Below are positions 10,422 through 64,000 of a DNA stretch of 64,000 bases, one piece after another (position 1 is the stretch's first letter; each line of letters opens with the position of its first letter). A program made the translations under genes and the position numbers. The DNA comes from Hirudinaria manillensis (Eukaryota; Annelida; Clitellata; Hirudinida; Hirudinidae): NCBI GenBank assembly GCA_034509925.1, contig CM067526.1, positions 1,774,001 through 1,838,000 on the forward strand. The letters run 5' to 3'. The notes below the pieces were generated by a model. It was not told the origin of the DNA. It saw only the letters and a list, made by a program, of their open reading frames with translations, and did no database searches.

Positions 10422-10861
10422 CTAAAACAAAAGTCCAGCCTCAAAGGGTGTAATAGCGAGAAGAACTATGGCTAAAGAATTAAAAGCGCCTCTGGAAACC
10501 TCAGACACTGCTCCTACAATAACATCCAAGCCAGAAATTCGTGCTTCCAGCTTTGGATGCACTGGAGATCGTTGTTGCAAGTGGTCTATAAGGATTTCCA
10601 TATCAAGGATGTCTGTAGATTATGAACACGATTAGACTTTTAGAAGCATGAAAATCATAAAGCGAGATTAATTTGTCCTTGAATCAATTAACCTTTAACC
10701 TACCGACTAACTAATTTATACTATATGTTTCAAGGTGGTAGTAGTCTAGCGATTGACTTATTTATTTATACAGATGGGGAAATTGAGAATAATTTTGTAA
10801 CCTCACCGTAAGACCTGATTTTGGATGTCTTCAGCATATCGTATCCAAAATCAGGTTTCAC
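10422..10861 (-). pseudogene. Extra 3' end of a 5'-nucleotidase gene: intact terminal exon plus truncated exon-8 fragment
   Basis: Just downstream of G1. 10612-10422 is a second copy of the family's last exon: acceptor CTACAG, open in the right phase for 62 residues to a stop, starting DILDMEILIDHLQQ and ending in a hydrophobic stretch (FNSLAIVLLAI) like a GPI-attachment signal. 10861-10807 matches only the 3' end of exon 8 (YDMLKTSKIRSYG then a GTGAGG donor), with no exon 8 body or acceptor upstream. Two readings fit: a leftover from a duplicated gene whose 5' part was lost, or an alternative last exon for G1. If G1 spliced to it, the C-terminus would be more clearly hydrophobic than with its own exon 9. 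RNA would decide. Confidence 0.6.
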
Positions 10862-10997
10862 GATCAATGTTTTTTTGGTATGACAAAAGTATTTTATAAA
10901 TCTTTTTTTATTTTTTTCTTAACTAATTCAACTGAAGAATATTTAATTCAGTTTCAAAACCTTGCTAATTAAAGTCGCTTCTTAAAACTATTTTAAA

Positions 10998-13900
10998 TTA
11001 ATAAAAACGAGAAACAAGTACCATTATCAGAACAAATTTCTGATACGAATTCAAAGTGCCTCTCGAGCTCGAGACTTCAGATTTTTTGTTCCCTAAAAAC
11101 CACGGAGGAATGTCTATGCCTGTAATTCTTCCCTCCAGCTTTGGATGAATTGGGGAATTATTCTCCAAGTAAGCTATAAGGATTTCCGTGTCAATGATGT
11201 CTATAAACAAGTTAAGCTAGTGTCTGATAAAATCATCTGACCTACGTGTTACCTATTGGCTAATTGAATAACATTCAAAGTTGTATATGGATGTTAATTA
11301 GCAATTTAACTGTTACTATAAGAATTGAAACTAAATAGTAAAAGCTAATTTCTAACCGTAAGACCTGATTTTGGACGTCTTTAGCATTGTGAAGCCGTCG
11401 CCCCCCTGAGCTATGAAATGAGGCATCGCTATTTCATAATCGACCGATTTATCGACCTTGACATATTCTGAACATCCGTGACATTTTCTAATCTCCAACT
11501 TGACGACTCTTTCCCCTTCCGGTTTCTTCAAATCGTACTTGACTTTTAAACCTTAGAAAGGAAACCGAAAAATTGAGTCAATGATAAAAATTGTAAGAAA
11601 TTCGAAATAAATACCAGAAACTTGGAGAAATTTTCCATGGCGACTCGTAAAGCTAAAACCTTTTACGCAATGTTCGAAGACTTTCCACAGTGTGGCACCT
11701 CCCACAGTTACCATTTCCATCTGATCACCGTATGGAAAAACGGCCGTCGCGTCAGCATAAGTGATTTCTCCTAATGTTAATTTTAATAATTAATCAAATT
11801 AAATTAAAATATGATTTTAATTAAATTTTAATTTAAATTAATTTAATGTCTGAAACGAATGAAGTATTTTATAATCGAGGACTGGGAAAATTTGATCGAC
11901 ATTGATTGCAATGATGGGGATGGCATTTCCATCGTCCATCCTAGGACGCCCTAAATGGATTTTGTTTCTAGCAGGAAACAGTCCTTAAGGAATGCTGTAA
12001 CTTGTTTAGTTAAATTCTACTTTCACATAACCACATAACCAGACCTTTGCCCAAAGAAGATCTTATGCTTCCACCGTTCATGACTCCAACTGTGAAATTT
12101 TTCCAACCACAAAAATCGTAAATAATTGCCACAAGGGCGTCGGCAAATAAATTTCCTAAACGAAATAAAATAAAATCAGTAGAAATATTTGCTTAAATTA
12201 ATTTTATTATAAAGTGTAAACATATTTTATTTTATTCGCATTAAAATCAATATTAATAATTGATGCTTTTATTAAAAAAAAACAAAAAAAAATAATTAAA
12301 GTTTTTAATATAACCTAATGTACACTCGCTTATTCTGCAAATTCCATCCGACGCATCGAAAGATTCGCTAGCCCATCCGACGTTGATGGAACTCACTGAT
12401 TGAATGTGTGTCTCCATAATATCAAAGAAATCAATCATAACTGGATCTGATGATTGTATTGTTTCAAACTTGCTTTAAACATTTACAAGGTAAACAAATT
12501 AATACGAAATGCCAGGTATAATTATAATTGATCATTTATGACAAATTTATAAAGAAATAAATACAATGCAATGTTTCTCTTATTATGAACAGTTTTGAAC
12601 TAGACCTTATGTTCCACGTTCTGCGTTATTATTTCTATATATTATGTATAGTTATATTATGTTAGTTATATTATGCAATAATTCTTAATAATAAATTATA
12701 CTTCCACTTCAGAATAACAAAATCCCTATTATTACCATTTTTTTATTGAAAATTATTTATAATACTAAAAAACACCACCTCAAAGTAGTAGGTAATATTT
12801 CTAATGCAAGCGACCCCTTTCGAGTTACACAATGATATCCACTTCAAATCATAACAACTGTAATCACCTTCGGAGATTTTCTCATCCATCAGGACGGGAT
12901 TTCCTGACCAGCTCGTCAAGTTCCCGTCGCCGTCGAAGGTAGTGTTCAACACTCCAATGTACTTTCCAAAACACCCGGCAGTGACGACCAAAGTCGTCCG
13001 ACCGTCATCATGTTTGACGACAAAAGGATATTCTCCTTCCACTTTGTCACCCGCTTCGTTATCACCTAATAAAAAACAATTAATGCTAAAATTTAGAAAA
13101 TCTAAGTTTTTTTTAAATTTAAGTGAGCTTGTTAAAGCGCGTTGGAAAACTATATAAACTAATTGATATTCAACATTATTATCTAGCAAAGCGTTATCAA
13201 TCTCGATGAGAAGAACCAAACAACCCTTGCACAATCCCTTGGCTATTCGACAATATATAATAAGAGCATACCTTTGTACAGCAAAGTATGTGTATGCCCT
13301 CCAACCAGAATATCAAGGTCAGGTATAGCTTTGGCTATCTGTTTGTCCCTGTCGATGCCCGAGTGACCCAAAGCGATGATTATGTTGATTCCTTTGGACG
13401 CGAGAATTTTTATTTCTCTTTGAATGGCTTGAACCTCATCGTCGAATTCTATTCCACCTGTTTTTAAACGATTAGAAATGAAAAAATATGTACGATATCT
13501 GCAAAGGACCAATTTTTATTTTGGCACTTATTTTCGATTATATGTTATTATTGATTTAAGATTTTAAGTTTATTAAAAATCCATATTAACACGTACACTT
13601 CTCTAATGAATGGTTCTTTATCTATTAATGAAAAAATAATTTTGGTAATGAAGAAATAGTATACTCATGCCATTCATAATTAATTTTGCCTTTAGTGGCA
13701 AGTGATTAAGTTTACATTATTGATGATTATATTTACATAATTATTATTACGTCTTATAATGACATTATTAATAGTGCCATTTTGGTTAATCTATGTTATT
13801 TCTCAAAAGCCCTCTAAGCGTCCCATAAGTTACAGCTAAGATTCCATATTCTTAAGCAGCATATATGTATTACGACAAAAGCATTACAATTATGAAACAG

Positions 13901-14670
13901 CTGGTAATAGGAATATTGCTAACATCCTGACGACTGGAAATGTTAAATGTTCCTACCAGTTTTAGAAAGGTAGAACACTTCAGGCGTGATATATCCAATT
14001 ATTCCTATCTGTCGGTCTTCTCTGGTCACCACAACATGATTATGAATACTGGCTTCTATTTCATTGTCAGTCACCAGAGTTCTTTTTATGTTTGCACAAA
14101 GTATGGATGTATATTTATTTGCAAACAGTGCCTTCAGACCTTCCGGTTTGTCATCAAATTCATGATTACCTAAGGCCTTAACCGTAAATTGTAAATTTAC
14201 ATTTAAATGTTTCGCCTCAAAATTATCGACAATATAAATGAATTTGGAGAATGGCTTAATTTTTATTCACGGAGGTGAATTTTTTTAAGTAGATCAGTAT
14301 ATTATAAAAAAAAAATAAGATATACCATGGCATCGTATTTGTGATGTTCGAGGTGGAATCTTGCGACGTTCCCCCGAAAAACATAGAACCACATCGTACC
14401 CTGGTACTGGTCACCAGCATCCAAAAGCAAAACATTTTTGTTCCTCGATCGAAAATCTTTGATGAATCCACCCCGTCGAACTATTCCTCCGTAACATTTC
14501 GTTTTCTTGTCATCCGGTTTCGAATCTTCGACCCTGCATTGTGAAGACTGTGCGGAAAACATTTCCACGCGAGCATGAACATCGTTCGTATGGAGAATGT
14601 GCAGCTGGAACGAAGAGGACGAATAGACAATAAAGACTGAATGCAAGAAAACCACCGTAAAAACGCTCAT
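10998..14670 (-). CDS. Ecto-5'-nucleotidase (CD73-like), array gene G1
   Basis: Metallophosphatase family that hydrolyses extracellular AMP to adenosine, normally GPI-anchored. Exons: 14670-14326, 14176-13957, 13457-13272, 13065-12868, 12446-12315, 12155-12045, 11770-11615, 11551-11357, 11200-10998; 581 aa (human CD73 574). ATG 14670 is the first in frame and precedes a hydrophobic signal peptide. An upstream TTG also keeps frame but is not favoured. Using human CD73 numbering, all checked residues are kept: D36 and H38 (HTNDVH), D85 (LDAGDQYQGT), N117/H118 (GNHEFD), H220 (ALGHSG), H243 (GGHTH), R354 (CRISEC), N390 and R395 (NGGSIR), F500 and D506 (FIAQGGDGF). F417 is Tyr. A TGACGTC element lies at 14797. 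An extra terminal exon is present downstream. Expected to be active. Confidence 0.9.
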
Positions 14671-15949: not shown

Positions 15950-15992
<43 letters not shown>

Positions 15993-16345: not shown

Positions 16346-16376
<31 letters not shown>

Positions 16377-19378: not shown

Positions 19379-22300
19379 TCAAACAAATTCACTTAAATTA
19401 AGTAATATTAATAATACCAAATCGAGAGTAAAATGCAAATTGTTTGAAACAAACAATGATACAAAACAGAAAAATACAATCGTGAACGATTGCAACACAT
19501 TAATTGTTGTTCCTAAACCTTTCAAACGAAACGTCTTCGGATTCCAGGTTCCTAAAATGCGATCTTCCAATTTGGCCCTTACTTGATCATAACTTTCAAA
19601 ATATTTCTTAATTATGTCTATTTGAACCAAGCCTGCAATTTAATTAATGGATTAAATTTTAAAACATCAGATACTTGTATATCAAAAACAATCTATAAAA
19701 AAAAAAGATATTTTTCCTTCAGAGCAATTTATCAGTAGTACATAAATGTATTGGTCAAATGTTATCCACACCGAAAATTCTAATTTTAGCCTCTTTTAGC
19801 ATAGAATAGCCATCACCGCCATTGGCCAAGAATTGAGGCATGGCAACTTCATAGCTTTTTGTTATGTCAATTTCACTGTGTTTGGAACATTCATAACAAT
19901 CCTTTGCTTCCAGTTTGACCACTCGTTTACCATCTCGTTTAGCCAAGTTGTATTTGACTTTAAAACCTAATTGTAAATATTATTTAAATTTGCAAATAAT
20001 AATATCTAAATAACGACTATACCGGAAACTTGAAGGAATTTTCCATGTCGACGTTTCATGCTGAAGTCTTCGGCAGAATGTTCGAAGGCTTTCAGTAAAG
20101 TTCCACCATCCACTGTGGCCAAAACCATTTGGTCGTCGTAAGGGAAAGACATCATCACGTCGGCATAGTTAATTTCTCCTTTTACGGGAAATTTTATTTA
20201 AATGAAATTAAACAGAAAGAAAAATAGACAAGTTAAGTGCTACAACGCACGACAAATAAAAATGGCTTGGGGGAAGGATTAGCCCTGGGGAGACTTCTAA
20301 TATCAAAATGGTCTTAAAAATAAAACATTTTAGCGAAGGCATTTCAAAATTAATATGGATCTTGATATAGATTATAAATTCGAAAGCATCTTATCCACTG
20401 GCCAACTCCAAGCTTTTCAATAAAGGTCATAAAATTTCAAACAATAATAATCTAAAATGTCTGTTGTAAACTAGAAGTACACATTTTGCACAATGTTTCA
20501 ATTTATTCAAATCCCTACACCATGTTCACTTAACAAATAAAAACAACTCATTATTTTAAGAAAGTTTTAAGAAAGAGCATCTGAAGTAGGTTCGAGTTTT
20601 AGCACGATTTCAAATAAACAAACATCACTAATTGCAAACCTTTAGGAAGAGATTCTTTTATAGCACCTCCCTGCAAAATAGCTAACGTGACATTTGACCA
20701 CTTGCACAAATCATGAATTTCTTTGACGAGAGCATCAGTAAATAAATTTCCTAAAAAGCACAAAAAATAAAAGCCCACATTTTTATGACTTAGATTAAAA
20801 TATGACAAGAAAAATTAAACATTACAGTACTAGTCGTAACAGAAATAACAGTAGAAACGATAATATTAATAATTAAATACTTTAGGTTAACGTCTGACCT
20901 AAGGTACATTCCTCTATCCTGCAAATTTTATTGGATGCATCAAAGAAATCGCCAGTGGTTCCCATACGAACTAAATTCATAAGTTGTACCATAGGATTGA
21001 AATCATCGAAGTAGGTCTGTGCTTGTGAATCTAAGGAATAAATAGGTTAATTATAAACGTTTAATTATAATATTAGCAAATTTTTCATGTAATTGTTGAT
21101 GCAATTCAGCGCTGCCAATTAAACGAGCCATGTTAACCTTCTTTCATTCTATAGTCTATAAGTACAGGATTGCCTGACCAGTCAGTCAGATTGCCATTGC
21201 TATCAAAGGACACGTTCAGGACACCAATGTATTTTCCATGAAATCCTGCTGTGACAACCAGCGTTTTTCTGCCGTCTTCGTGTTGGATGACAATCGGGTA
21301 TTCCCCTTCCACAACGTCACCTTCTATGTTTTCCCCTTTTTGGGATTATTTCAATATTTGTAGATGATTTAAATTTCAATTAAATCGTCTTAATATTGCC
21401 ATAATTTGTTTTATTGTCTTAATATTAATATCAACGATAAGCAATAAATACCAAGCTTGTGAACAATAAAGTCCAGCCTTTATTGCATAATAAACGGGTC
21501 TTCTAGATATTCAACCGGATAATTGCATTTATTCAAAATACGATAGTTTTACCCTTGTACAGTAGGACATGGGATAGTCCTCCAATTATGATGTCAATTT
21601 CAGGCAGGGCTCTGGCTATTTCTTTGTCTTTATCAATACCTGAGTGGCCAAGGGCTATGATTATATCGCTGTCGTTGATTTTCGATATGGCAGATCGTAA
21701 ACCAGTTATTTCATCCTCGAATTTTATTCCTAAATTCAAACACGTATCAGTTATTATGAATTATTTATTTATTTTATTATTTATTTATTATTTATTCTAC
21801 CCATAATCATTTTAAGATCGATTTTTAAGGATTTTTACGGATTACGTTTACAGATTGACGATCGTTATTGATTTTAAGTCTCCACTAAAGTATAGAGATG
21901 GACCCGTGGAAAAGTAGCGATCGAGCGGAACTAATTCCAACCGGTGTGGCCCTTAAACCATATATTGTAATTTTATTTATTGTTTTTTATATTAATTAAA
22001 ATGTTCTCAAGAGAATTATTCTGGGTTCCCACCTGGTCTAGAAAGAATTTCAACTTCAGGAGTGATGTATCCAATGATTGATACGTTGCTAAGCAAGCCT
22101 ATTCTTTCGCGGAAGTTTTTTATCATGTAATCTTCAATGCGCAAAGGCATCTTGATCCTGTGATCTATGGCAATGTTGGAGCAGAGTATGTGGACTTCCC
22201 AGTCGTCCTTTCCATCTGCTAACAATGGTTCTATTCCTTCTAATCCGTTGTAAAATTCATGGACACCCAAGGCCTGTTTTAAGGAATAAGTGAATTTCAT

Positions 22301-23087
22301 TAATCTTTTATGTCTTAATATTGATTGTTACGATATCCGCAATAGAGTGCATAATGAATTGTCACGATTTCAAAATCGTTTTACTTTGAAACTGACTATC
22401 TGTCAAAGGACACGAAACTAAACATACAGATTGGACACAAATCGCTGTTGTAATCCATTAAATTTTAAATAATAAAAATATATGAAAATTTGAAGAATGA
22501 ACTGAACATTCATCATAGCAAGCCAAGTCAATCGGTGATTTAAAAAAATTATCGCCTTTAATGCCCTAGTCCCTAGACTCAGAAAGGTTTTAACAATTGT
22601 TAGTAAACTTAAAAGGCAAGTATTTCATTAAATCGTTACTTTGACTTGATAACGAATAACTATTATGATCAAATGTATTTTGTAGCAGTTTATGAGTTAT
22701 TAAGAAGGCCATGTTTTGTTCAATTAGTGGAAAAATAATAACGCCAACCATAGCATCGTATTTCAGTTGATTAAGAAACAAACTCGTAATATTTCCTTGG
22801 AAGACATTAAACCACATCGTTCCTTGATAGTGATCCCCAGCATCTAAGAGCAAAACGTTTTTATTTTTCTCCCGAAATTTTCTGATAAACTCCGCCATTC
22901 TGGTTATTCCTCCATAACATTTGGTCGTCTTGTCATCTGGTTTCATATCCTCGATCTTGCAAGATTTAGATTTTGCGGAAAACATATCGAAGTGTGAATG
23001 GAAATCGTTAGTGTGAAGGATAAACATCTGCAACGAAGATGTGGTTACAAGGAAAAGCAGGTTTAACCCGACCGTTGGAGAAATCAT
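19379..23087 (-). CDS. 5'-nucleotidase homolog, array gene G3, probable pseudoenzyme
   Basis: Nine exons: 23087-22749, 22273-22033, 21729-21553, 21335-21138, 21030-20899, 20750-20640, 20178-20023, 19966-19772, 19632-19379; 600 aa, no internal stops. Signal peptide, then LHTNDFHSHFDMFS. By CD73 numbering, D36, H38, D85, H220, R354 (CRIEEC), F500 and D506 remain. N117 is Val (GVHEFYNG), H243 is Leu (GGLSH), N390 is Gln and R395 is Lys (LQGGAIKESL). Two zinc ligands and two AMP-contact residues are therefore gone, while the fold-defining sequence and open frame are kept. The C-terminal tail is long and hydrophobic, consistent with GPI anchoring or membrane retention. Exon 1 is a mosaic: its 5' part (22807 upward) is identical to G4 and G5, while its 3' part is distinct. 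Confidence 0.88.
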
Positions 23088-23169
23088 CAAGGAAGCTATT
23101 ATTGCTTTGAATTAATTTGATTTTGTTAAAAATGTAAGCCTCCCTTAGAGATTAAACGGTTAGAATATT

Positions 23170-23177
23170 TTACGTCA
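23170..23177. promoter_or_regulatory. CRE half-site upstream of G3
   Basis: TTACGTCA, 83 bp upstream of the G3 ATG, inside the duplicated unit. It is followed by GTTTGTTT as in G5. Confidence 0.35.
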
Positions 23178-23334
23178 GTTTGTTTATGTTGCATGAATTA
23201 TTAGGTATGAATGTTAAAACACATCTCAGTTTAGTTATAAACTCGTTTTCATTATGGACTAAAAGTAAGGAACATTTTATTAATCAAATTAACATTAATA
23301 ATAGTAGATATAATATTAATGCATTTATCTTGGC

Positions 23335-23422
23335 ATGCCTAGATGCCTGAAATCATATTGTCCAACATTGTCCTGCCAGCTTTCTAACTGCGATATAGGA
23401 TCGATTGCCGGACAGTTGTTTT
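23335..23422 (-). other. Exon-like block of unknown origin
   Basis: Minus-strand block with an acceptor-like TTTTGTAG and a short open frame (begins NNCPAIDP, ends LGMPR then TAA). An exact second copy is at 27801-27888 by duplication. A diverged relative lies inside G6 intron 7 at 33502-33583 (ends LGMFR then TAA), but the reading frames of the two versions do not agree throughout. It could be a relic exon or a short noncoding repeat. Confidence 0.3.
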
Positions 23423-23548
23423 CTACAAAATATAATAAATTGATACTATATATCATATACTCGGGATAATCAATTTATGAATTTATTATTCAAATTATTA
23501 ATTTCTTTATCAGTTAATAAAAAAGTAAACCAAATGAAACCCAGTAAC

Positions 23549-23610
23549 TGCATGAAGAATAAACATCTGCTGCGAAGATGTTGTTAATAGGTTTTATGCA
23601 GGTTTTACGC
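23549..23610 (-). pseudogene. Relic of a nucleotidase exon 1
   Basis: About 60 bp matching the signal-peptide end of exon 1; the minus strand reads TTSSQQMFILHA, against TTSSLQMFILHT in G3. It sits upstream of G3 and has no continuation. An identical duplicate is at 28015-28076. It marks a lost array member. Confidence 0.6.
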
Positions 23611-23611
23611 C

Positions 23612-23660
23612 TCTGTAGCTCACGCGTTCGGCGCTATATAAATGACTTATTATTATTTTT
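23612..23660. repeat. Possible SINE tail
   Basis: A GC-richer segment containing GCGTTCGGCGCTATATAAATG followed by TTATTATTATT resembles the 3' tail of tRNA-derived SINEs in many invertebrates. No complete box A or box B head was found. Duplicated at about 28078-28126. Confidence 0.3.
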
Positions 23661-24074
23661 ATCATTATTATGCTAAGGGAATAAAAAGATTTTACTGAAA
23701 ACATTTTGCCAATTCCAGGCACGATTTCAACAAGAAATCGAGTTCTTCATTCAGTCGAATGCCATCGCTTTGTTTGTTTGTTTTTTTTTTTTTTTTTTTT
23801 TTTTTTGATTCATTCATCCATTTGGATATCTTCCTCATGAGATAATACTCTTATTATTTTTTTTTCAGAAAAAATGCCGGAAAAAATTTAAAACACTTTG
23901 TTTAGAGAAAAAGATTGTGGACGACTTATGTTGAGACTCTCAATGCACGAAAACACAGATAACTTTTTAAACAATTTAAAATTTATTTATTATTGATTAT
24001 AAAAAAAAATTCTGAACAACAAATTGTCATTAATCGAAGGAGTTCAACTCAAACGAAAGTTTACTTGAACTAAA

Positions 24075-27000
24075 CTATACAAAATCAATGTCGTAATGCA
24101 ACTTGTTTGAAACAACTGATGTCGCAAACGATAAAAATACCGTCGTGATTGATTGAAATATACTAGTTGGTATTCCGACGCCTTTTCTGAAAGGCTCCAA
24201 ATTCCATGTTCCTTTAATTCGGTTTTTCTCTTTCGGGTCCGCTTTACCGTAATCTTGAAAATATCTCTGAATGATGTCTATTTCGGACAAACCTGCAATG
24301 CAAACAATGGATGATTGGAATTTTAAAATGTCTGGCATTTTGTATGTCAAAGAAATTCTAAAATAAAAAAAAAACATTTTTTTCTCCAGAACGATTTATA
24401 TTTAATATGACATTTTGTTTTCCTCACCGTAAAATCTAGTTTTAGCCTCTTTTAGCATAGAATAACCTTCACCGCCATTGGCTAAAAACTGGGGCATGGC
24501 TACTTCGTATTTTTTTGAGATATCAACTTCAGTATAATCAGAACATTCATAGCAATTCTTTACCTCCAGTTTGACTACTCTTTCGCCGTTTGGCTGTCTC
24601 AAATCATACTTGACCTTAAAACCTAATGTGAAATTTAATGTAAATATTACTTGAACTCCAATGTTTCAGTAATAAATGTCCGCGAATCATAGTTCTCTAG
24701 TTAGTTTGTTAACTAGACAAGATAATGAACAAAATTTCATTACAAAATTTTAACCGGAATTTTATCAAGTTTTAATATCAATAAACAAATCAATAATAAA
24801 TACCCATTAGCAAGCATGATTAATATCAATAACAACAACAACAACAACAATAATAATAATAATAATAAAATCTAAACAAAGGTTATACCGGAAACTTGAA
24901 GGAATTTTCCATGTCGTCGTTTTAGGCTGAACTCTTCAGCAGAATGTTCGAAGACTTGCAGCAAAGTTTTACCATCCACCGTCGCCGAAACTATTTCATT
25001 ATTGTGCGGGAATGATGTTATCACATCAGCAAAACTGATTTCTCCTTTTATTAAATTAAACTGACACTTACGAGAGTTTTGATTGAATTTATTCGTAAGA
25101 ACATAAAAGTAAATTTGGGTTCGAATGAAATAATTATTTCTTATAAACAGTAAACGAACATTTTACTGAGTTTAATGACTCTGGAACTACTGTAGGAAGT
25201 TCAACTACAAATCCTTTTGTAAATAAAGGCCAGTGAACTTTTTGGTATTAACCTATTACTACTGTTAAGAGTATTATATAAGTAGTAAGGGCCTATGATC
25301 AATAGCAATGACCAATAATAAGAGCACGTATCTGAAACTGGTCATTATCACAAGTGCAAATAAAAAACAAGTAAACCGACCTTTATAAAGAGAATGTTGT
25401 ATAGCGCTTCCATGTATTATTGCTAAATAGATATTTGAACAGTCGCACAAATCATGAAGAACATTAACAAGAGCATCGGTAAAGAAATTTCCTTCAAAAA
25501 AAAACAATTAAAAAATTAAAATGAGTCTTTATGGGTTAGGCATTTCAAATTTAAAAATTAAAATATGATAAGAAGCGTCATGGAATAAACAATGATAATG
25601 GTAAAAATTATGATATTGTAGTGAAATACTTCAGATAAATGTCTGACCTAGGGAACATTCCTCTACCCTGCAAATTTTATTGGACCCATAAATCATATCG
25701 CTAGTGGTTCCAATATGAACTGAAGACATAGCTTGCAGTATCGGCCTCATCTTATCGAGGTGATATTTGGAATCTACATCTAAGAAATAAATCGTTTGAT
25801 TATATATTAAATTATTAATATATTATCAAATAAAGTAGTAATAGTTGAAATTTCTGATGCAACTCGATGCCGTCATTCATACCAGCCTCATTAACCTTCA
25901 TCAAATTTATCGTCTATAAGCATGGGATTGCCTGACCACAAAGACAGATGGCCTCTGAAATCAAAGGACACGTTCAGGACACCAATGTATTTTCCATGAA
26001 ATCCTGCTGTGACAACCAGCGTTTTTCTGCCGTCATCGTGTCGGATGACAATCGGGTATTCCTCTTCCACAACGTCACCTTCTTTGTTTTCCCCTTTTTG
26101 GGATTATTTCAATATTTGTAGATGATTTAAATTTCAATTAAATCGTCTTAATATTGCCATAATTTGTTTTATTGTCTTAATATTAATATCAGCGATAAGC
26201 AATAAATACAAAGCTTGTGAACAATAAAGTCCAGCCTTTATTGCATAATAAACAGGTCTTCTAGATATTCAACCGGATAATTGCATTTATTCAAAATACG
26301 ATAGTTTTACCATTGTACAGTAGGACATGGGATAGTCCTCCAATTATGATGTCAATTTCAGGCAGGGCTCTGGCTATTTCTTTGTCTTTATCAATACCTG
26401 AGTGGCCAAGGGCTATGATTATATCTCTGTCGTTGATTTTCGATATGGCAGATCGTAAACCAGCTATTTCATCTTCAAACTTAAGTTTTCCTAAATTTCA
26501 TCATATATTAGTTGTTATGAATAAGAATTTGTCCGGATGCTATAGATTTTCACTGTGCGCACAACCATTTCGTTATTATTTACAAAACGAAACGTATCAT
26601 TGAATTTGAAAGTTATGTCTTACTGTTTACATGAATTAAAATGTTCTCAAGATAAATAGAATTTCAAAAAGTCTCGTGTCCCACCTGGTCTAGAAAGAAT
26701 TTCAACGTCAGGAGTGACATATCCAATGACTGCCACTTTGACAGTAACACCTGGTCTTTTTTCTAAGGGTTTTGTCATATATTCTTCAATGCCAAAGGGA
26801 ATATCGATCCCTAGATTTTTGGCAATGTTGGCGCATAGTATTCTGACTTTCGGGCTCTGATTTATGTCTGGTAATAATATGTTTAATCCATCTATTCCGT
26901 AATCAAATTCATGGGTGCCCAAAGCCTATTTTAAAAAGTAAATCGACTTTATTAATCACTTGGTTTATATTTATTTATTATTACATTGTTAACATTTATG

Positions 27001-27553
27001 GATTACACTGAATTTTGTGATGAACTGTCACGACTTTATAATCGTGTTATTTTGAAATTGACAAAGAAATTTGTTTTTTCAAAGGATATGAATCAAAAGA
27101 GATCTTAACTAATTGGGAGATTGCTGGACTTGAAGATTATGAGTTATTAAGTAGACCTTGTTTTTTTTTTTAATAATGTAATAAATATAATAAATAAATT
27201 AATAATTCACCAACCATAGCATCGTATTTCAGGTGATCAAGAAAGAATCTCGATACATTTCCTCGGAAGACGTTAAACCACATCGTTCCTTGATAGTGAT
27301 CCCCAGCATCTAAGAGCAAAACGTTTTTATTTTTCTCCCGAAATTTTCTGATAAACTCCGCCATTCTGGTTATTCCTCCATAACATTTGGTCGTCTTGTC
27401 ATCTGGTTTCATATCCTCGATCTTGCAAGATTTAGATTTTGCGGAAAACATATCGAAGTGTGAATGGAAATCGTTAGTGTGAAGGATAAACATCTGCAAC
27501 GAAGATGTGGTTACAAGGAAAAGCAGGTTTAACCCGACCGTTGGAGAAATCAT
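24075..27553 (-). CDS. 5'-nucleotidase homolog, array gene G4, probable pseudoenzyme
   Basis: Nine exons: 27553-27215, 26925-26685, 26490-26311, 26093-25896, 25779-25648, 25491-25381, 25044-24889, 24622-24428, 24292-24075; 589 aa. Signal peptide, LHTNDFHSHFDMFS, and D85 in LLLDAGDHYQGT are present. By CD73 numbering, N117 is Thr (GTHEFDYG), H243 is Leu (GGLSH), N390 is His and R395 is Gln (HGSAIQ), F417 is His (FPHNN) and D506 is Glu (NGGEGY). H38, H118, H220, R354 and F500 remain. With this many metal and AMP contacts altered, ordinary AMP hydrolysis looks unlikely, yet all exons, phases and cysteines near R354 (CRVEEC) are kept. I found no coding difference from G5. The hydrophobic C-terminal segment (VFLSFATSVVSNKLHYD) suggests GPI anchoring. 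Confidence 0.88.
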
Positions 27554-28537
27554 CAAGGAAGCTATTATTGCTTTGAATTAATTTGATTTTGTTAAAAATG
27601 TAAGCCTCCCTTAGAGATTAAACGGTTAGAATATTTTACGTCAGTTTGTTTATGTTGCATGAATTATTAGGTATGAATGTTAAAACACATCTCAGTTTAG
27701 TTATAAACTCGTTTTCATTATGGACTAAAAGTAAGGAACATTTTATTAATCAAATTAACATTAATAATAGTAGATATAATATTAATGCATTTATCTTGGC
27801 ATGCCTAGATGCCTGAAATCATATTGTCCAACATTGTCCTGCCAGCTTTCTAACTGCGATATAGGATCGATTGCCGGACAGTTGTTTTCTACAAAATATA
27901 ATAAATTGATACTATATATCATATACTCGGGATAATCAATTTATGAATTTATTATTCAAATTATTAATTTCTTTATCAGTTAATAAAAAAGTAAACCAAA
28001 TGAAACCCAGTAACTGCATGAAGAATAAACATCTGCTGCGAAGATGTTGTTAATAGGTTTTATGCAGGTTTTACGCCTCTGTAGCTCACGCGTTCGGCGC
28101 TATATAAATGACTTATTATTATTTTTATCATTATTATGCTAAGGGAATAAAAAGATTTTACTGAAAACATTTTGCCAATTCCAGGCACGATTTCAACAAG
28201 AAATCGAGTTCTTCATTCAGTCGAATGCCATCGCTTTGTTTGTTTGTTTTTTTGTTTTTTTTTTTTTTTGATTCATTCATCCATTTGGATATCTTCCTCA
28301 TGAGATAATACTCTTATTATTTTTTTTTCAGAAAAAATGCCGGAAAAAATTTAAAACACTTTGTTTAGAGAAAAAGATTGTGGACGACTTATGTTGAGAC
28401 TCTCAATGCACGAAAACACAGATAACTTTTTAAACAATTTAAAATTTATTTATTATTGATTATAAAAAAAAATTCTGAACAACAAATTGTCATTAATCGA
28501 AGGAGTTCAACTCAAACGAAAGTTTACTTGAACTAAA
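27554..28537. other. Spacer between G4 and G5
   Basis: Duplicate of the G3-G4 spacer (23088-24074). Carries the CRE half-site, the exon-like block (27801-27888), the exon 1 relic (28015-28076), the SINE-like tail and a T-rich tract that differs in length and has an added G compared with the first copy. Confidence 0.8.
27636..27643. promoter_or_regulatory. CRE half-site upstream of G4
   Basis: TTACGTCA, 83 bp upstream of the G4 ATG, identical to the G3 site by duplication. Confidence 0.35.
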
Positions 28538-31500
28538 CTATACAAAATCAATGTCGTAATGCAACTTGTTTGAAACAACTGATGTCGCAAACGATAAAAA
28601 TACCGTCGTGATTGATTGAAATATACTAGTTGGTATTCCGACGCCTTTTCTGAAAGGCTCCAAATTCCATGTTCCTTTAATTCGGTTTTTCTCTTTCGGG
28701 TCCGCTTTACCGTAATCTTGAAAATATCTCTGAATGATGTCTATTTCGGACAAACCTGCAATGCAAACAATGGATGATTGGAATTTTAAAATGTCTGGCA
28801 TTTTGTATGTCAAAGAAATTCTAAAATAAAAAAAAAACATTTTTTTCTCCAGAACGATTTATATTTAATATGACATTTTGTTTTCCTCACCGTAAAATCT
28901 AGTTTTAGCCTCTTTTAGCATAGAATAACCTTCACCGCCATTGGCTAAAAACTGGGGCATGGCTACTTCGTATTTTTTTGAGATATCAACTTCAGTATAA
29001 TCAGAACATTCATAGCAATTCTTTACCTCCAGTTTGACTACTCTTTCGCCGTTTGGCTGTCTCAAATCATACTTGACCTTAAAACCTAATGTGAAATTTA
29101 ATGTAAATATTACTTGAACTCCAATGTTTCAGTAATAAATGTCCGCGAATCATAGTTCTCTAGTTAGTTTGTTAACTAGACAAGATAATGAACAAAATTT
29201 CTTTACAAAATTTTAACCGGAATTTTATCAAGTTTTAATATCAATAAACAAATCAATAATAAATACCCATTAGCAAGCATGATTAATATCAATAACAACA
29301 ACAACAACAACAATAATAATAATAATAAAATCTAAACAAAGGTTATACCGGAAACTTGAAGGAATTTTCCATGTCGTCGTTTTAGGCTGAACTCTTCAGC
29401 AGAATGTTCGAAGACTTGCAGCAAAGTTTTACCATCCACCGTCGCCGAAACTATTTCATTATTGTGCGGGAATGATGTTATCACATCAGCAAAACTGATT
29501 TCTCCTTTTATTAAATTAAACTGACACTTACGAGAGTTTTGATTGAATTTATTCGTAAGAACATAAAAGTAAATTTGGGTTCGAATGAAATAATTATTTC
29601 TTATAAACAGTAAACGAACATTTTACTGAGTTTAATGACTCTGGAACTACTGTAGGAAGTTCAACTACAAATCCTTTTGTAAATAAAGGCCAGTGAACTT
29701 TTTGGTATTAACCTATTACTACTGTTAAGAGTATTATATAAGTAGTAAGGGCCTATGATCAATAGCAATGACCAATAATAAGAGCACGTATCTGAAACTG
29801 GTCATTATCACAAGTGCAAATAAAAAACAAGTAAACCGACCTTTATAAAGAGAATGTTGTATAGCGCTTCCATGTATTATTGCTAAATAGATATTTGAAC
29901 AGTCGCACAAATCATGAAGAACATTAACAAGAGCATCGGTAAAGAAATTTCCTTCAAAAAAAAACAATTAAAAAATTAAAATGAGTCTTTATGGGTTAGG
30001 CATTTCAAATTTAAAAATTAAAATATGATAAGAAGCGTCATGGAATAAACAATGATAATGGTAAAAATTATGATATTGTAGTGAAATACTTCAGATAAAT
30101 GTCTGACCTAGGGAACATTCCTCTACCCTGCAAATTTTATTGGACCCATAAATCATATCGCTAGTGGTTCCAATATGAACTGAAGACATAGCTTGCAGTA
30201 TCGGCCTCATCTTATCGAGGTGATATTTGGAATCTACATCTAAGAAATAAATCGTTTGATTATATATTAAATTATTAATATATTATCAAATAAAGTAGTA
30301 ATAGTTGAAATTTCTGATGCAACTCGATGCCGTCATTCATACCAGCCTCATTAACCTTCATCAAATTTATCGTCTATAAGCATGGGATTGCCTGACCACA
30401 AAGACAGATGGCCTCTGAAATCAAAGGACACGTTCAGGACACCAATGTATTTTCCATGAAATCCTGCTGTGACAACCAGCGTTTTTCTGCCGTCATCGTG
30501 TCGGATGACAATCGGGTATTCCTCTTCCACAACGTCACCTTCTTTGTTTTCCCCTTTTTGGGATTATTTCAATATTTGTAGATGATTTAAATTTCAATTA
30601 AATCGTCTTAATATTGCCATAATTTGTTTTATTGTCTTAATATTAATATCAGCGATAAGCAATAAATACAAAGCTTGTGAACAATAAAGTCCAGCCTTTA
30701 TTGCATAATAAACAGGTCTTCTAGATATTCAACCGGATAATTGCATTTATTCAAAATACGATAGTTTTACCATTGTACAGTAGGACATGGGATAGTCCTC
30801 CAATTATGATGTCAATTTCAGGCAGGGCTCTGGCTATTTCTTTGTCTTTATCAATACCTGAGTGGCCAAGGGCTATGATTATATCTCTGTCGTTGATTTT
30901 CGATATGGCAGATCGTAAACCAGCTATTTCATCTTCAAACTTAAGTTTTCCTAAATTTCATCATATATTAGTTGTTATGAATAAGAATTTGTCCGGATGC
31001 TATAGATTTTCACTGTGCGCACAACCATTTCGTTATTATTTACAAAACGAAACGTATCATTGAATTTGAAAGTTATGTCTTACTGTTTACATGAATTAAA
31101 ATGTTCTCAAGATAAATAGAATTTCAAAAAGTCTCGTGTCCCACCTGGTCTAGAAAGAATTTCAACGTCAGGAGTGACATATCCAATGACTGCCACTTTG
31201 ACAGTAACACCTGGTCTTTTTTCTAAGGGTTTTGTCATATATTCTTCAATGCCAAAGGGAATATCGATCCCTAGATTTTTGGCAATGTTGGCGCATAGTA
31301 TTCTGACTTTCGGGCTCTGATTTATGTCTGGTAATAATATGTTTAATCCATCTATTCCGTAATCAAATTCATGGGTGCCCAAAGCCTATTTTAAAAAGTA
31401 AATCGACTTTATTAATCACTTGGTTTATATTTATTTATTATTACATTGTTAACATTTATGGATTACACTGAATTTTGTGATGAACTGTCACGACTTTATA

Positions 31501-32013
31501 ATCGTGTTATTTTGAAATTGACAAAGAAATTTGTTTTTTCAAAGGATATGAATCAAAAGAGATCTTAACTAATTGGGAGATTGCTGGACTTGAAGATTAT
31601 GAGTTATTAAGTAGACCTTGTTTTTTTTTTTAATAATGTAATAAATATAATAAATAAATTAATAATTCACCAACCATAGCATCGTATTTCAGGTGATCAA
31701 GAAAGAATCTCGATACATTTCCTCGGAAGACGTTAAACCACATCGTTCCTTGATAGTGATCCCCAGCATCTAAGAGCAAAACGTTTTTATTTTTCTCCCG
31801 AAATTTTCTGATAAACTCCGCCATTCTGGTTATTCCTCCATAACATTTGGTCGTCTTGTCATCTGGTTTCATATCCTCGATCTTGCAAGATTTAGATTTT
31901 GCGGAAAACATATCGAAGTGTGAATGGAAATCGTTAGTGTGAAGGATAAACATCTGCAACGAAGATGTGGTTACAAGGAAAAGCAGGTTTAACCCGACCG
32001 TTGGAGAAATCAT
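28538..32013 (-). CDS. 5'-nucleotidase homolog, array gene G5, duplicate of G4
   Basis: Nine exons: 32013-31675, 31385-31145, 30950-30771, 30553-30356, 30239-30108, 29951-29841, 29504-29349, 29085-28891, 28755-28538; 589 aa. It has the same residue losses as G4 (GTHE, GGLSH, HGSAIQ, FPHNN, NGGEGY). The coding sequence appears identical to G4, so the copies are very recent or homogenised by gene conversion. The promoter differs: the duplicated block ends at 32091, and beyond it G5 has a full palindromic TGACGTCA at 32095-32102 where G3 and G4 have TTACGTCA. G5 is thus likely to keep the original upstream region, while G4 and G3 share a copied one. Confidence 0.88.
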
Positions 32014-32888: not shown

Positions 32889-35800
32889 CTAAACGAAACT
32901 GCTACTGAAATGCAGACGGGTTGAAGCGACCAGTGATACAAAAGATAAAAATACAATCGATAGTAATTGAAATGCACCAGTTGTTATTCCAAAGCCGCCT
33001 TTTCCAAACGATTCCATGCCTTGTATGCGATCATTCAGTTGTGGTTTCACCGGTTCATTTTTCGTAAAGTAAGTCGTAATGACATCTATCTCTAAGATAT
33101 CTGTAATGGTGATGATACAATGCCAAGAAAGGAATATAACTTAAAAGAAAAAAAAATCACATCTATTACGAATCATTCAGGCAAACATTATGCGACCCTC
33201 CTAATTCGTGAATTCCTTTCAAAGCATAATAACTCTAATATTTTGTCTGTACTCACCGTAATTTTTAACTTTAACATTCTTGAGCATAGAATAACCATCA
33301 CCGCCATTGGCTAAGAATTGGGGCATGGCTACGTCATAATTAGCTGCGGTATCGACTTCAACATATTCGGGACATTCGTAACATTTCTTTACCTCAACCT
33401 TGGCAACTCTTTCTCCATTAGGTTTGCTCAAGTCATACTGAACTTTGAAACCTGAAATTCAAATTATTTATTAATATATATTAAACCTTTACTCGATGTA
33501 GTTATCTGAACATGCCTAGATTATCCAAATTATCAACTATCAACTCAGGCACTACGTCGGACTGATTGCCAGACAATTCTATTCTAGTAATAGTCTAAGT
33601 ATATTTCATTGTGGAAAAAGGTCAATTAAAAAAAGCTTGGAATCATTAAAATGCATTCCAGAAGTTCATTAGAAATAGGACCACATAGAAACAGTGCACA
33701 TTTTTATAGGAGTGGCTCTTTTAGAAATTCTAACCTAGAGATTAATAATAAAATTAATACAATAAGTAATTATTAATATAAAAATGTAATTTAAAAGTTA
33801 ATATCCCCTAGTGTTTACCGTTGATCTAGGAAGTTTTCTAGATCAATTTATTCCGCATTTTCGCAATCTATATAAATAAAAATGCAATGTGTGTTTGTAA
33901 CATGCAAATGTTCTCTGAAAGTACTTGACCAATTGCTTTGAAATTTTGACACAACATAGTGCTCGATTAGAGGAGTGTTTGTATATAGGTTTCATATATA
34001 CGCCACAACTATATCATGTAAAAATACGCTTTTTTCGAAAATCATATTGAGCCACGCGTTACTGTGGCTGGGCGCCACTAGTATCTTTATAAAATCTTCC
34101 TTCGAGTGCAATAAAATTGCTTCAAGACAAAAGTTACGAAAATAAACTCGCGCGGGGTTCCAGCACATAAAACGTTGTCGTCAGAATATAAAGTCAATAA
34201 TGGTATTCCATTATAAATTAGCATTATAATTAAGGTCGACAATAATGTCCAAACAACGGATATACCTGAGACTTGAAGAAATTTTCCATGCCGAGAGGTG
34301 AGGCTAAAATCTTCAACGGAACGTTCAAAGACTTTCAACAGAGTTGCACCGTCCATCGTCGCTACAACCATTACATTGCCAAATGGGAATACCGTCATCA
34401 CGTCACCGTAGTTGATAGTACCTATTCGTAAAACAAATTCGATTCTTCCATCGTTAATTATCGCACTGGAGAAGGTTTCGTCGTAGATATTCAACAGCAT
34501 CATTAGTACATTGCACATTGTACAATAACATTATTAGTACATCAGTACATTGTCATCAAAAAAAATGTTTAAACGATAAATAGCAGAACACTTTAGAATT
34601 TTTCGAGGCAGCCAAAACAGCTACGTATCCGTATTCTCGGCGGAATGTCGATTTCTAGCAACAATAGTAGCAGGCAGATTCATGACGCTTCTTTCAAAGA
34701 GCAAGTCATCAAAGAAATGTTCCAACCGCGAAACTAACCTTTCTTGAATGATGATCTTATACCCCCACCGTTCATGATGGCCAGAGTGAAATTTGGCCAC
34801 TTGCACAAATCATGAATTGCATCGACCAATGCGTCAGCAAATAGGTTTCCTAAAAAAAATAAATAACAGAAAATAAAAATAAACATCTTTTTTAATCAAG
34901 CATTTTAAAATGTTGAGATGCGATGAACGGCTGGACAGATTAGCAGTAGTCAAGATGATATGAATGTGATTATTATTAGTAGTAGTAGTAGTAGTTAATA
35001 AATAAATATTTTAAAATTGATATAAAATAATAATAATAATAATAATATCATTTGAAACGTTGACGAACAAATAATCCACAAGTGCATTCGACCTAAAGTG
35101 CATTCCTTTATTCTGCAAATGCTGTCGGAAGTATCAAATACGTCGCTCGTAGCTCCAACTTCAACGACGGCCATAGCGTCTATTTTCGGCCTCAAACTAT
35201 TCAGATATTCCGTGGCTTTTGGATCTGCAAAAAAAAAGTCACATCGATTCATATCGGCGAACTTTTCGTTCCAAATTTTCTATAATTGCTGCACTCAAAG
35301 CAAAAAAAAATAGTAGCAGGCAGAAAGCAATTCGGACATACAATAACATTACGTAATTAAAAAAATTGTTTTAGCATCTCAAATAATAATAATAACATTA
35401 ATAATATTAATTATTCATTTATTATAAGTATTAATTTATTATTAATAATAATTAATTATAATATTATAATTATAATTATTATTATTATTATTATTATTAT
35501 TTCAATTATAATAATAATTTGTCTTATGGTCTCATTTGTCAACAAAATGTTAATCATTCGAAGGGACCTTCTGCATGATCGTGGCCAATTGCCACAGTGT
35601 TGCCTGAATAAGCAGTGATTTCACCAGCGTCATCAAAGGTCACGTTCAGGACACCAATGTACTTTCCATGACATCCTGCTGTGACAACCAGCGTTTTTCT
35701 ACCGCCATCATGATTGATGACAATCGGGTACTCCCCGCCCACATAGTCGCCATGTTCGTTTTTCCCTTTTTTTTGAATATTTCAGTCATTTTAAATTATT

Positions 35801-37086
35801 TAAATTTCAATTGTCTTAGTTATTGCATTATAAATATCAAGAATAATCAACAATCAATAAGTCTCCTAAGGACTTTAATGCCTGAATAAATAGATTTTCA
35901 TGATGTTGATGTTTAATACTTTGTATAATTACCAGAATGCAATAGGGTGTGGGAATGTCCTCCAATTACAATATCAAGATCAGGAATTGCCTTAGCAATT
36001 TCTTTATCTCGATCAATGCCAGAATGGCCGAGAGCAATTATTATTTTGGTAGAAGGAGCCTTTTTTATAGTATCTCTTATGCCGGTTATTTCATCTTTGA
36101 ACTCCACATTTTCTGAATTCATAAGGAGATTGTAGAAATTCTGAGCCACGGTGTGACTTGAACGTCAGTCATTTTGCAAATTAAGCGTTTTTAATCATTT
36201 TAATTATCAGGAATTGGCGCTTAGTGAAATTTACTTTTGGTTTTTGAATTTGCAATTGAGTTTTGTTTTTTTCCTTTTAGTAATTTATATATTATTTTTT
36301 AAGACAAGCGAAATTTAACCCAGTAAAAAGTTTGTTTCTTTAGTTCTACCTGTTTTGGCGAGTACTTTAACTTCGGGCGTAAGGTACCCAATTATTGCTA
36401 CATCCTTCTCTAATTTCTTCATAATACCTTTATCGATTGTTCTTTCCGCCCCTTCTTGACTGAAATCGTCAGAGACAGGCAAACCATGATCAATGTTAGA
36501 ACACAATATTCTCGTTTTAATGGGCCCACGTGTTAGTGGTTCTAAGCCACTTAGTCCGTTATCAAATTCGTGATTGCCCAAAGCCTGTTTTTAAAAAAAA
36601 AAGTAAAATATCAACGAAAGTTTTTTAGTAATTTATAAAATTCGAAATAAAACCGCTCCAATATATGACGTCAAGTCAGTTTCAATGATAAATGTATTTA
36701 TTATAATACTTTTTTTTAACAATTTATGGATAAATAATAGTGCCAACCATAGCATCGTATTCCATGTAATCAAGAAAGTATCTCGTAACATTTCCTTGGA
36801 AGACATTAAACCACAAAGTTCCCTGATACTGGTCCCCAGCATCTAAGAGCAAAACGTTTTTATGGTTTTCGCGAAAGTTTTTGACAAATTGTGCCATTCT
36901 CGCTACCCCTCCGTAGCATTTTGTTTTAATATCATCAGCTTTAATATCTTCAATCTTGCATGATTGGGATCTTGCAGAAATCATTTCGAAGCGTGAATGG
37001 ACATCATTCGTATGAAGAATATGCAGCTGCATTGAAGATGTGGTTACAAGGAAACACAAGTTTAACCCAAGAATTGATGAAACCAT
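32889..37086 (-). CDS. Ecto-5'-nucleotidase (CD73-like), array gene G6
   Basis: Nine exons: 37086-36748, 36584-36350, 36112-35933, 35765-35568, 35224-35093, 34849-34739, 34421-34266, 33451-33257, 33100-32889; 585 aa. Starts MVSSILGLNLCFLVTTSS (signal peptide), then LHTNDVHSRFEM. All checked CD73 positions are intact: D36, H38, D85 (LDAGDQYQGT), N117/H118 (GNHEFDNG), H220 (ALGHSG), H243 (GGHSH), R354 (CRIKEC), N390/R395 (NGGGIR), F417 (FPFGN), F500/D506 (FLANGGDGY). A hydrophobic C-terminus (FQLLSIVFLSFVSLVAS) suggests a GPI anchor. Expected product: surface AMP phosphatase producing adenosine. Intron 7 contains a Helitron at 33867-34081. Divergent to NAT10, with 550 bp between start codons. 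The exon 4 acceptor is a T-rich-strand AAAAAG rather than a typical polypyrimidine-CAG. Confidence 0.92.
33502..33583 (-). other. Diverged relative of the 23335-23422 block, in G6 intron 7
   Basis: Shares the runs GGCAATC and ATCTAGGCATG with the spacer block near G3. Weakly exon-like (TACTAG acceptor, open to TAA). Origin unknown. Confidence 0.3.
33867..34081 (+). mobile_element. Non-autonomous Helitron-like element
   Basis: 215 bp with Helitron ends. The 5' end is TCTATATAAATAAAAATG, and the 3' end carries the hairpin GCCAC-gcgttact-GTGGC followed nine bases later by CTAG, matching the CTRR rule. It is inserted between A and T (A before TC, T after CTAG) with no target-site duplication. 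The internal segment (TTGACCAATTGCTTTGAAATTTT) resembles the GGCTGAACCGATTTTGATGAAATTT core of short Helitrons well known from arthropods. No coding capacity. Lies in intron 7 of G6. Confidence 0.75.

Positions 37087-62359: not shown

Positions 62360-64000
<1,641 letters not shown>

What the first reader, a model, noticed from the sequence alone, without database searches (positions are those of the whole stretch)
19379..32013. Three central array members (G3, G4, G5) look like nucleotidase pseudoenzymes with intact frames
The sequence shows open nine-exon genes with signal peptides, but position by position against human CD73, N117 becomes Val or Thr, H243 becomes Leu, N390/R395 become Gln/Lys or His/Gln, and in G4/G5 F417 becomes His and D506 becomes Glu. 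In CD73 these bind zinc or AMP. Flanking G1 and G6 keep them, apart from F417 being Tyr in G1. Keeping the fold, cysteines and secretion signals while losing catalysis suggests a binding or decoy role, for example sequestering nucleotides or acting as a surface ligand. The function is inference.
Basis: partly seen in the sequence, partly recalled or inferred. Interest (0 to 1): 0.85.

Follow-up and report, generated by a model that had tools for sequence, protein, structure and literature searches.

The report
Leech CD73-like genes with broken active sites
A blood-feeding leech carries a row of genes for a well-known nucleotide-cutting enzyme, three of which (two of them identical) have lost key parts of the active site but keep the rest of the protein, so they probably act by binding rather than by cutting.

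Summary
G3, G4 and G5 are open nine-exon genes of the ecto-5'-nucleotidase (CD73) family, and all listed substitutions are real. Corrections: G4 and G5 have identical coding sequences, so there are two distinct proteins; G2 also has H243L, probably independent; G3 also has D121Y and F417Y. The two lost zinc ligands belong, by recall, to one metal site; the other site's ligands are kept. The genome is Hirudinaria manillensis, the Asian buffalo leech. It holds at least 12 CD73-type genes: six keep all seven metal/catalytic residues, six do not, including two outside the window that lost six of seven. Active-site columns changed more than other invariant columns (6 of 14 versus 11 or 12 of 125). 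G3 is under purifying selection; G4 alone is not distinguishable from neutral, though its frame is open. The four pocket positions altered in both genes outside recombined tracts differ between them, as in an abandoned pocket. Nucleotide sequestration is therefore unlikely; protein binding or dimer partnership is likelier but unproven. No report of this array was found.

The parts
10422..14670 (-). G1: nine-exon CD73-like gene, metal and catalytic residues complete, F417Y
   Evidence: start codon read from the upstream in-frame codons
15153..18721 (-). G2: nine-exon CD73-like gene, one zinc ligand lost (H243L), the six substrate residues kept
19379..23087 (-). G3: nine-exon CD73-like predicted pseudoenzyme (N117V, D121Y, H243L, N390Q, R395K, F417Y)
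   Evidence: omega 0.37, neutrality rejected p=0.0032
24075..27553 (-). G4: nine-exon CD73-like predicted pseudoenzyme (N117T, H243L, N390H, R395Q, F417H, D506E)
   Evidence: omega 0.77, neutrality not rejected p=0.57
28538..32013 (-). G5: coding sequence identical to G4 (0 differences in 1770 nt)
32889..37086 (-). G6: nine-exon CD73-like gene with all tested metal, catalytic and substrate residues; sister of G3/G4 in the tree
22033..22273 (-). G3 exon 2, carrying the altered GNHE motif (LGVHEFY)
21553..21729 (-). G3 exon 3, carrying the altered GHxH motif (GGLSH)
26685..26925 (-). G4 exon 2, carrying the altered GNHE motif (LGTHEFD)
26311..26490 (-). G4 exon 3, carrying the altered GHxH motif (GGLSH)
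22732..23634 (-). Upstream flank plus most of exon 1 of G3, 98.6% identical to window 27196-28100 (G4): gene-conversion or recombination tract
   Evidence: exon 1 differences begin at nt 282
20875..21761 (-). Stretch shared by G3 and G4 (window 25624-26522), 86.5% overall: exon 3 96.0%, intron 3 98.6%, exon 4 88.9% identical
23534..27651 (.). Left copy of the tandem unit; 99.7% identical over 4118 aligned columns to about 28000-32110

Best explanation
G3 and G4/G5 are secreted or surface-anchored CD73-fold pseudoenzymes in the leech Hirudinaria manillensis. They arose by tandem duplication from a G6-like enzyme. Shown by sequence: two of the seven metal/catalytic residues are gone (N117, H243), and three (G3) or four (G4) of the six substrate residues examined are altered, while both family domains, three of four cysteine pairs, a hydrophobic signal-like N terminus and the reading frame persist. 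From recall of the metallophosphoesterase fold, the two lost ligands belong to the same (M2) site and the M1 ligands are kept. Inferred: hydrolysis is lost or severely reduced, and the proteins now act through the protein surface. The mechanism I think most likely is binding of a host or self protein, for example the platelet-receptor antagonism reported for 5'-nucleotidase-family proteins of tsetse and deerfly saliva. Tissue of expression and any binding partner are unknown.
For: Residue table; enrichment of change at active-site columns. CD73 homology and both Pfam domains over the curated cut-off for G3 and G4 (one search is G4 only). The two tips have omega 0.50 and neutrality is rejected, p=5e-05; G3 alone 0.37, p=0.0032. 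In a substitution-only neutral simulation the frame stayed open in 15 and 0 of 2000 runs for G4 and 8 and 0 of 2000 for G3, at 0.13 and 0.25 substitutions per site. Exons 2+5 and 7+8 differ in nonsynonymous:synonymous counts between G3 and G4 (89:20 versus 38:38, p=1e-05): part of the protein is held while another part is free. At the four positions altered in both genes outside the recombined exons (117, 390, 395, 417) G3 and G4 carry different residues, 4 of 4. The genome is that of a blood-feeding leech. Tsetse 5'Nuc binds GPIIb/IIIa with KD 92 nM, and chrysoptin is described in the same paper as a 5'-nucleotidase-related GPIIb/IIIa antagonist, both without an RGD motif.
Against: No expression, activity or binding data. 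G4 alone: omega 0.77, neutrality not rejected, p=0.57. The stem branch fits omega of 1 or above (stem=1 not rejected, p=0.8). No positive selection in three branch-site tests (p=0.42, 0.21, 0.23), where an arms-race role might predict some. Substrate residues also vary in paralogues with a complete metal set: F417Y in G1, N390P and F500S in P1766, N390T and F500Y in P874, F500Y in P846, so those changes alone do not mean loss of function. G3 and G4 share G393A next to the altered pocket, and about 40% of residues differ between them outside the recombined exons anyway (per-exon identities), so 4 of 4 differing pocket positions is only modest evidence. The tsetse protein keeps its catalytic residues, so that precedent is for dual function, not for a dead enzyme. 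Retained H118, R354, F500 and M1-type ligands could support residual activity. The C-terminal hydrophobic stretch is followed by 22 (G3) or 11 (G4) residues, so secretion, GPI anchoring or membrane retention is undecided. No structure model was made.
Confidence: 0.45

Rival explanations
1. Heterodimer or regulatory partners: G3-G5 pair through the C-terminal domain with active paralogues (G1, G6) and modulate them. CD73 is a dimer through that domain (recalled).
For: Two exons of the C-terminal domain have the lowest omega between G3 and G4 (exon 7 0.26, exon 8 0.12); co-located genes, with a shared upstream flank between G3 and G4.
Against: Other exons of that domain are less constrained (exon 6 0.61, exon 9 0.50); no interface was modelled; the constraint may only reflect folding; no co-expression data.
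Confidence: 0.15
2. Altered enzymes: a one-metal or re-specialised phosphoesterase with a different substrate.
For: M1-type ligands D36, H38, D85 and H245, plus H118, H220, R354 and F500, are retained; G3 R395K and F417Y are mild, and G1, with a complete metal set, also has F417Y; G393A is shared by G3 and G4.
Against: The four pocket positions altered in both genes outside the recombined exons differ between G3 and G4, 4 of 4, unlike a conserved new site; D36, H38, D85, H220 and H245 lie in exons 1 and 3, homogenised by recombination, so their retention in both is not independent evidence.
Confidence: 0.15
3. Young, decaying duplicates: relaxed genes that have not yet acquired a stop.
For: G4 alone is compatible with omega 1 (p=0.57) and the stem with omega 1 (p=0.8); about 38% of codons are released to omega near 1 on stem plus tips; G4/G5 is a nearly identical duplication.
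Against: G3 rejects neutrality (p=0.0032), both tips together reject it (p=5e-05), the neutral simulation left frames open in 15, 0, 8 and 0 of 2000 runs, and 46% of codons sit in a class with omega 0.08.
Confidence: 0.15
4. Nucleotide decoys: bind but do not cleave AMP or ADP, sequestering them.
For: R354 and F500 are kept.
Against: N117, R395, F417 and (in G4/G5) D506, reported contacts of phosphate, ribose and adenine, are altered.
Confidence: 0.05
5. Assembly artefact for G5: a falsely duplicated copy of G4.
For: Identical coding sequence; 5 mismatches and 3 gap openings over 4118 columns.
Against: The published assembly is reported as PacBio HiFi plus Hi-C (passages). Bears on copy number only, not on G3 or G4.
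Confidence: 0.05

Closest known systems
Ecto-5'-nucleotidase CD73 (NT5E), human 4h2i/9hd5, and snake venom 5'-nucleotidase 7d0v/5h7w
   Same: Same two-domain family over nearly the whole length (G4 versus snake E=1.3e-98, versus human about 2e-96); same cysteine pairs 51/57, 353/358, 476/479; hydrophobic N-terminal stretch.
   Different: G3-G5 lack N117 and H243 and have several altered substrate residues; the 365/387 cysteine pair is absent.
Tsetse salivary 5'Nuc and deerfly chrysoptin
   Same: 5'-nucleotidase-family protein of a blood feeder; non-catalytic GPIIb/IIIa antagonism without an RGD motif (PMC2843633, passages).
   Different: The tsetse protein keeps metal-binding and catalytic residues and is an active apyrase; receptor binding by leech proteins is untested.
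Leech 'apyrase' catalogued in the H. manillensis antithrombotic gene set (PMC10671345)
   Same: Same animal; a clustered multigene family linked there to platelet inhibition (passages).
   Different: Most likely the PF06079 cluster on C2 at 3.23-3.26 Mb, a different family from the PF00149+PF02872 array in this window; the passages say five (once six) apyrases, and 'nucleotidase' occurs 0 times in the main text.

Membership tests
CD73/UshA 5'-nucleotidase family (by descent) | N-terminal metallophosphoesterase domain (PF00149) plus C-terminal PF02872 | tested here: met
   G4: PF02872 8.1e-32, PF00149 1.2e-08; G3: 2.9e-32 and 1.8e-09, both over cut-offs. P3492 and P171 matched PF02872 only
CD73 (as an active enzyme) | Complete metal and catalytic residue set D36, H38, D85, N117, H118, H220, H243 | tested here: not met
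   N117 and H243 lost in G3-G5, H243 in G2; complete in G1 and G6
CD73 (as an active enzyme) | AMP contacts R354, R395, F417, F500, D506 (contacts of an inhibitor in the substrate site: PMC7508162, passages) and N390 (role recalled) | tested here: not met
   3 of 6 altered in G3, 4 of 6 in G4/G5; but 1 to 2 of 6 are also altered in G1, P1766, P846 and P874, which have complete metal sets
CD73 (as an active enzyme) | AMP hydrolysis | not testable with these tools
   needs protein
CD73 | Signal peptide and C-terminal GPI signal | tested here: inconclusive
   Hydrophobic N-terminal stretch present; hydrophobic C-terminal stretch followed by 22, 11 and 11 residues in G3, G4 and G6, by none in G1 and G2 (hydropathy only)
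Pseudoenzyme | Homologue of active enzymes with catalytic residues lost and the gene maintained by selection | tested here: met
   Met for G3 (omega 0.37, p=0.0032) and for both tips together (p=5e-05); for G4 alone inconclusive (p=0.57)
Pseudoenzyme | Measured absence of catalysis | not testable with these tools
   needs protein
5'-nucleotidase-fold GPIIb/IIIa antagonist (tsetse 5'Nuc, chrysoptin) | Binds platelet fibrinogen receptor | not testable with these tools
   needs a binding assay; no RGD or KGD in G2-G6, one KGD in G1 (position 248 of the model)
PF06079 apyrase | PF06079 domain | tested here: not met
   Not among the Pfam matches of G3 and G4; the 15 genome matches all lie on C2

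The most novel reading that the evidence does not exclude
In this leech half of the CD73-type genes found (6 of 12) have lost part or nearly all of the metal centre, apparently on at least three lines (G2; G3 with G4/G5; P3492/P171), and the fold has been recruited as a new class of non-catalytic secreted effectors at the bite, acting on platelet or purinergic-surface proteins.
Probability: 0.2. Interest if true: 0.8.

Novelty: new variant of a known kind. Interest (0 to 1): 0.52.

Why it matters
CD73 is a major drug target (recalled), and leech saliva is a source of antithrombotics. A natural series from complete enzyme (G6) through one lost ligand (G2) to two (G3, G4/G5) and six residues lost (P3492, P171) would show how an enzyme fold is turned into a binding scaffold, and would supply ready-made, probably non-catalytic CD73-like proteins to test. 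The array appears to be missing from the published catalogue of antithrombotic genes of this leech, as far as the passages seen show.

Tried and rejected
Plain pseudogenes: rejected for G3 by omega and open frame, less firmly for G4. Positive selection: three branch-site tests negative. Exon 4 looked fast between G3 and G4 (20.2 nonsynonymous to 1.8 synonymous), but 18 of its 22 differences lie at nt 135 or beyond, outside the recombined part, so it was not taken as selection. H243L in G2 as a conversion from G3: not supported; exon 3 identity G2-G3 is 67% against 73% for G1-G2, and the codons differ (CTG, CTA). Other animals were entertained from memory before the mitochondrial order and the hirudin matches pointed to a leech; the nematode SL1 search found nothing, but its control was silent too, so it shows nothing. 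The sequence collections on hand for related-locus searches are viral, metagenomic and prokaryotic and were not searched, so orthologues in other leeches were not examined. The C3 gene (L014) aligned poorly, looks like another 5'-nucleotidase subfamily and was set aside from all counts.
Full report
What was checked. Six minus-strand genes result: G1 10422-14670, G2 15153-18721, G3 19379-23087, G4 24075-27553, G5 28538-32013 and G6 32889-37086. Each has nine exons and GT..AG introns, the phase pattern is the same in all six, and there are 0 internal stops in 6 of 6 models. G4 and G5 have 0 differences in 1770 coding bases.

Residues. Human CD73 letters came from the alignment of chain 9hd5_A, numbered from E28. 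It adds D121Y and F417Y in G3 and H243L in G2. D36, H38, D85, H118, H220, R354 and F500 are kept in G3-G5. Of the 12 leech CD73-type genes, 10 have His at human position 245 (Asn in human; Arg in P3492, Gly in P171), which gives the GHxH form usual in metallophosphoesterases (recalled). Also recalled: D85, N117, H220 and H243 bind one metal (M2) while D36, H38, D85 and residue 245 bind the other (M1); on that assignment G3-G5 lose two of four M2 ligands and no M1 ligand. Contacts reported for a CD73 inhibitor in the substrate site are N117, H118 and R395 for one phosphonate, N245, R354 and R395 for the other, R354, R395 and D506 for ribose, and F417/F500 stacking for adenine (PMC7508162, passages). 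The role of N390 is recalled. Against a simple reading, substrate residues also vary in paralogues with a complete metal set: F417Y in G1, N390P and F500S in P1766, N390T and F500Y in P874, F500Y in P846. R395 and D506 do not vary in those.

Is it more than drift? Of 139 columns invariant in human, snake, G6 and P2872, G3 changed 6 of 14 active-site columns and 11 of 125 others (Fisher p=0.0023); G4 6 of 14 and 12 of 125 (p=0.0032); G2 1 of 14 and 7 of 125 (p=0.58). Three reference sets were tried and all three gave p below 0.025 for G3 and G4. G3 and G4 are not independent, because they share ancestry and recombined tracts. P3492 shows the same enrichment (11 of 14 against 45 of 125, p=0.0027); P171 does not (8 of 14 against 62 of 125, p=0.4).

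Which genome. The window is C1:1774001-1838000 of a 148,429,096-base genome in 23 contigs. C1 is 14,755,599 bases and C23, the mitochondrion, is 15,581. Reading the mitochondrial frames by eye gives the order cox1, cox2, cox3, tRNA-Gln, nad6, which I recall as typical of annelids. Eight hirudin-family matches, all weak (best E 5.8e-6, the only one under 0.001), cluster on C4 at 12.24 Mb. The assembly of Hirudinaria manillensis in PMC10671345 (passages) has 22 scaffolds, the longest 14.76 Mb, and a mitochondrial genome of 15,581 bp. The match is close to certain, though the totals (148.43 and 148.59 Mb) are not identical.

The family in the genome. A protein search of the whole genome and a PF02872 search, both lower bounds by their own statement, give 12 CD73-type genes: six in the window and six elsewhere on C1, called P1766, P846, P874, P2872, P3492 and P171. 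One further gene on C3 (L014) appears to belong to another 5'-nucleotidase subfamily and was left out. Of the 12, six keep all of D36, H38, D85, N117, H118, H220 and H243 (G1, G6, P2872, P1766, P846, P874); six do not (G2 lacks one; G3, G4 and G5 lack two; P3492 and P171 lack six). P3492 and P171 are nevertheless CD73 relatives over most of their length (best E 2.7e-69 and 1e-41), though Pfam's PF00149 did not match them at the threshold used. Models outside the window are partial at the ends, some splice choices are uncertain, and the alignment of P171 around N117 is unsure.

History. In the maximum-likelihood tree of 13 proteins (G5 omitted as identical to G4), G3 and G4 join (100/100) and G6 is their sister (100/99); G2 pairs with P2872 (87/88). 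H243L in G2 and in G3/G4 is therefore best read as two events; the Leu codons differ (CTG, CTA). P3492 and P171 are long branches and their join is unsafe. G3 and G4 share two recombined stretches: 98.6% identity over 905 columns covering the upstream flank and most of exon 1, and exon 3 to intron 3 (96.0% and 98.6%). The other seven introns align about as well as shuffled sequence, within 4 percentage points. G4 and G5 are copies of a tandem unit, 99.7% identical over 4118 columns with 5 mismatches and 3 gap openings. The retained M1-type ligands lie inside the recombined exons, so their retention in both genes counts once.

Selection. On exons outside those tracts (2 and 5-9, 326 codons; tree G1, G6, G3, G4) the tips G3 and G4 together have omega 0.50 (equal to 1 rejected, p=5e-05), G3 0.37 (p=0.0032), G4 0.77 (p=0.57, not rejected); the stem is compatible with 1 (p=0.8); the background is 0.11, with saturated branches. 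A run on all exons but exon 1 (451 codons) gave 0.60 for the tips (p=0.0009), and the pairwise G3-G4 estimate on exons 2-9 is 0.62 (2 delta lnL 9.5 against omega 1). Branch-site tests gave no positive selection in 3 of 3 settings (p=0.42, 0.21, 0.23); the stem-plus-tips fit puts 46% of codons at omega 0.08 and 38% in a class released to about 1. A substitution-only neutral simulation left the frame open in 15 of 2000 (G4) and 8 of 2000 (G3) runs at 0.13 substitutions per site, and in 0 of 2000 for both at 0.25; these depths were my choice. Between G3 and G4, exons 2+5 show 89 nonsynonymous to 20 synonymous changes against 38 to 38 in exons 7+8 (p=1e-05; exons chosen after seeing the table).

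What it most likely does. Four pocket positions outside the recombined exons are altered in both genes (117, 390, 395, 417), and G3 and G4 carry different residues at all four; two more are altered in only one (121 in G3, 506 in G4). G393A, beside them, is shared. Since roughly 40% of residues differ between G3 and G4 outside those exons (per-exon identities), this is modest evidence, but a re-tooled enzyme or a nucleotide decoy should keep a pocket, and this one looks abandoned while the scaffold is held. I therefore favour a surface-binding role. The nearest precedent is the tsetse salivary 5'Nuc, an apyrase that also binds GPIIb/IIIa (KD 92 nM), and chrysoptin; both lack RGD (PMC2843633, passages). 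G2-G6 also lack RGD and KGD. Salivary expression of the leech proteins is not shown; in Hirudo, salivary secretions are reported to contain apyrase, while known anticoagulant genes were not enriched in salivary cells over muscle (PMC7191736, passages). The hydrophobic C terminus leaves open whether the proteins are released or anchored.

What is known. The leech paper reports five apyrases (passages; 'six' in one sentence); a PF06079 search finds 15 exon-wise matches, all on C2 at 3.23-3.26 Mb, consistent with five genes, so that family is most likely the one catalogued. Searches of the open-access library for CD73 with pseudoenzyme (0 papers), metallophosphoesterase with pseudoenzyme, nucleotidase with Hirudinaria, nucleotidase with leech and salivary (listing only) and nucleotidase with catalytically inactive, salivary and gene duplication showed no report of this array in their listings or in the passages read; most of the papers listed were not opened, and subscription papers are mostly not held.

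Limits. No transcripts, no structure model, no orthologues from other leeches, and dN/dS on few and divergent sequences.

Noticed in passing
L013/L017 (G000 C1:3492027-3495033 as modelled): P3492, a CD73 relative outside the window with six of seven metal/catalytic residues replaced but an open frame in the modelled exons.
   Followed up: partly
L016 (G000 C1:167620-171694 as modelled): P171, a second, more divergent CD73 relative with six of seven metal/catalytic residues replaced; exon boundaries uncertain.
   Followed up: partly
L009 (G000 C1:1765604-1767877): P1766, about 6 kb left of the window: metal residues complete, but N390P and F500S, and no cysteine at positions 51, 57, 358, 476 and 479; possibly changed specificity.
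   Followed up: no
G000 C9:3026446-3027786 and C23:31-1371: A COX1 match on nuclear contig C9 with the same score and stop count as the mitochondrial one: a recent nuclear copy or an assembly slip.
   Followed up: no
window 50689-53219 (-): Cadherin-repeat gene with long open frames.
   Followed up: no
window 63020-63457 (+): eRF1 domain 2 match (PF03464), part of a release-factor or Pelota-like gene.
   Followed up: no
window 4455-4787 (+): Open frame with a short repeated unit rich in Gly, Trp, Met and Asp, probably a minisatellite rather than a gene.
   Followed up: no
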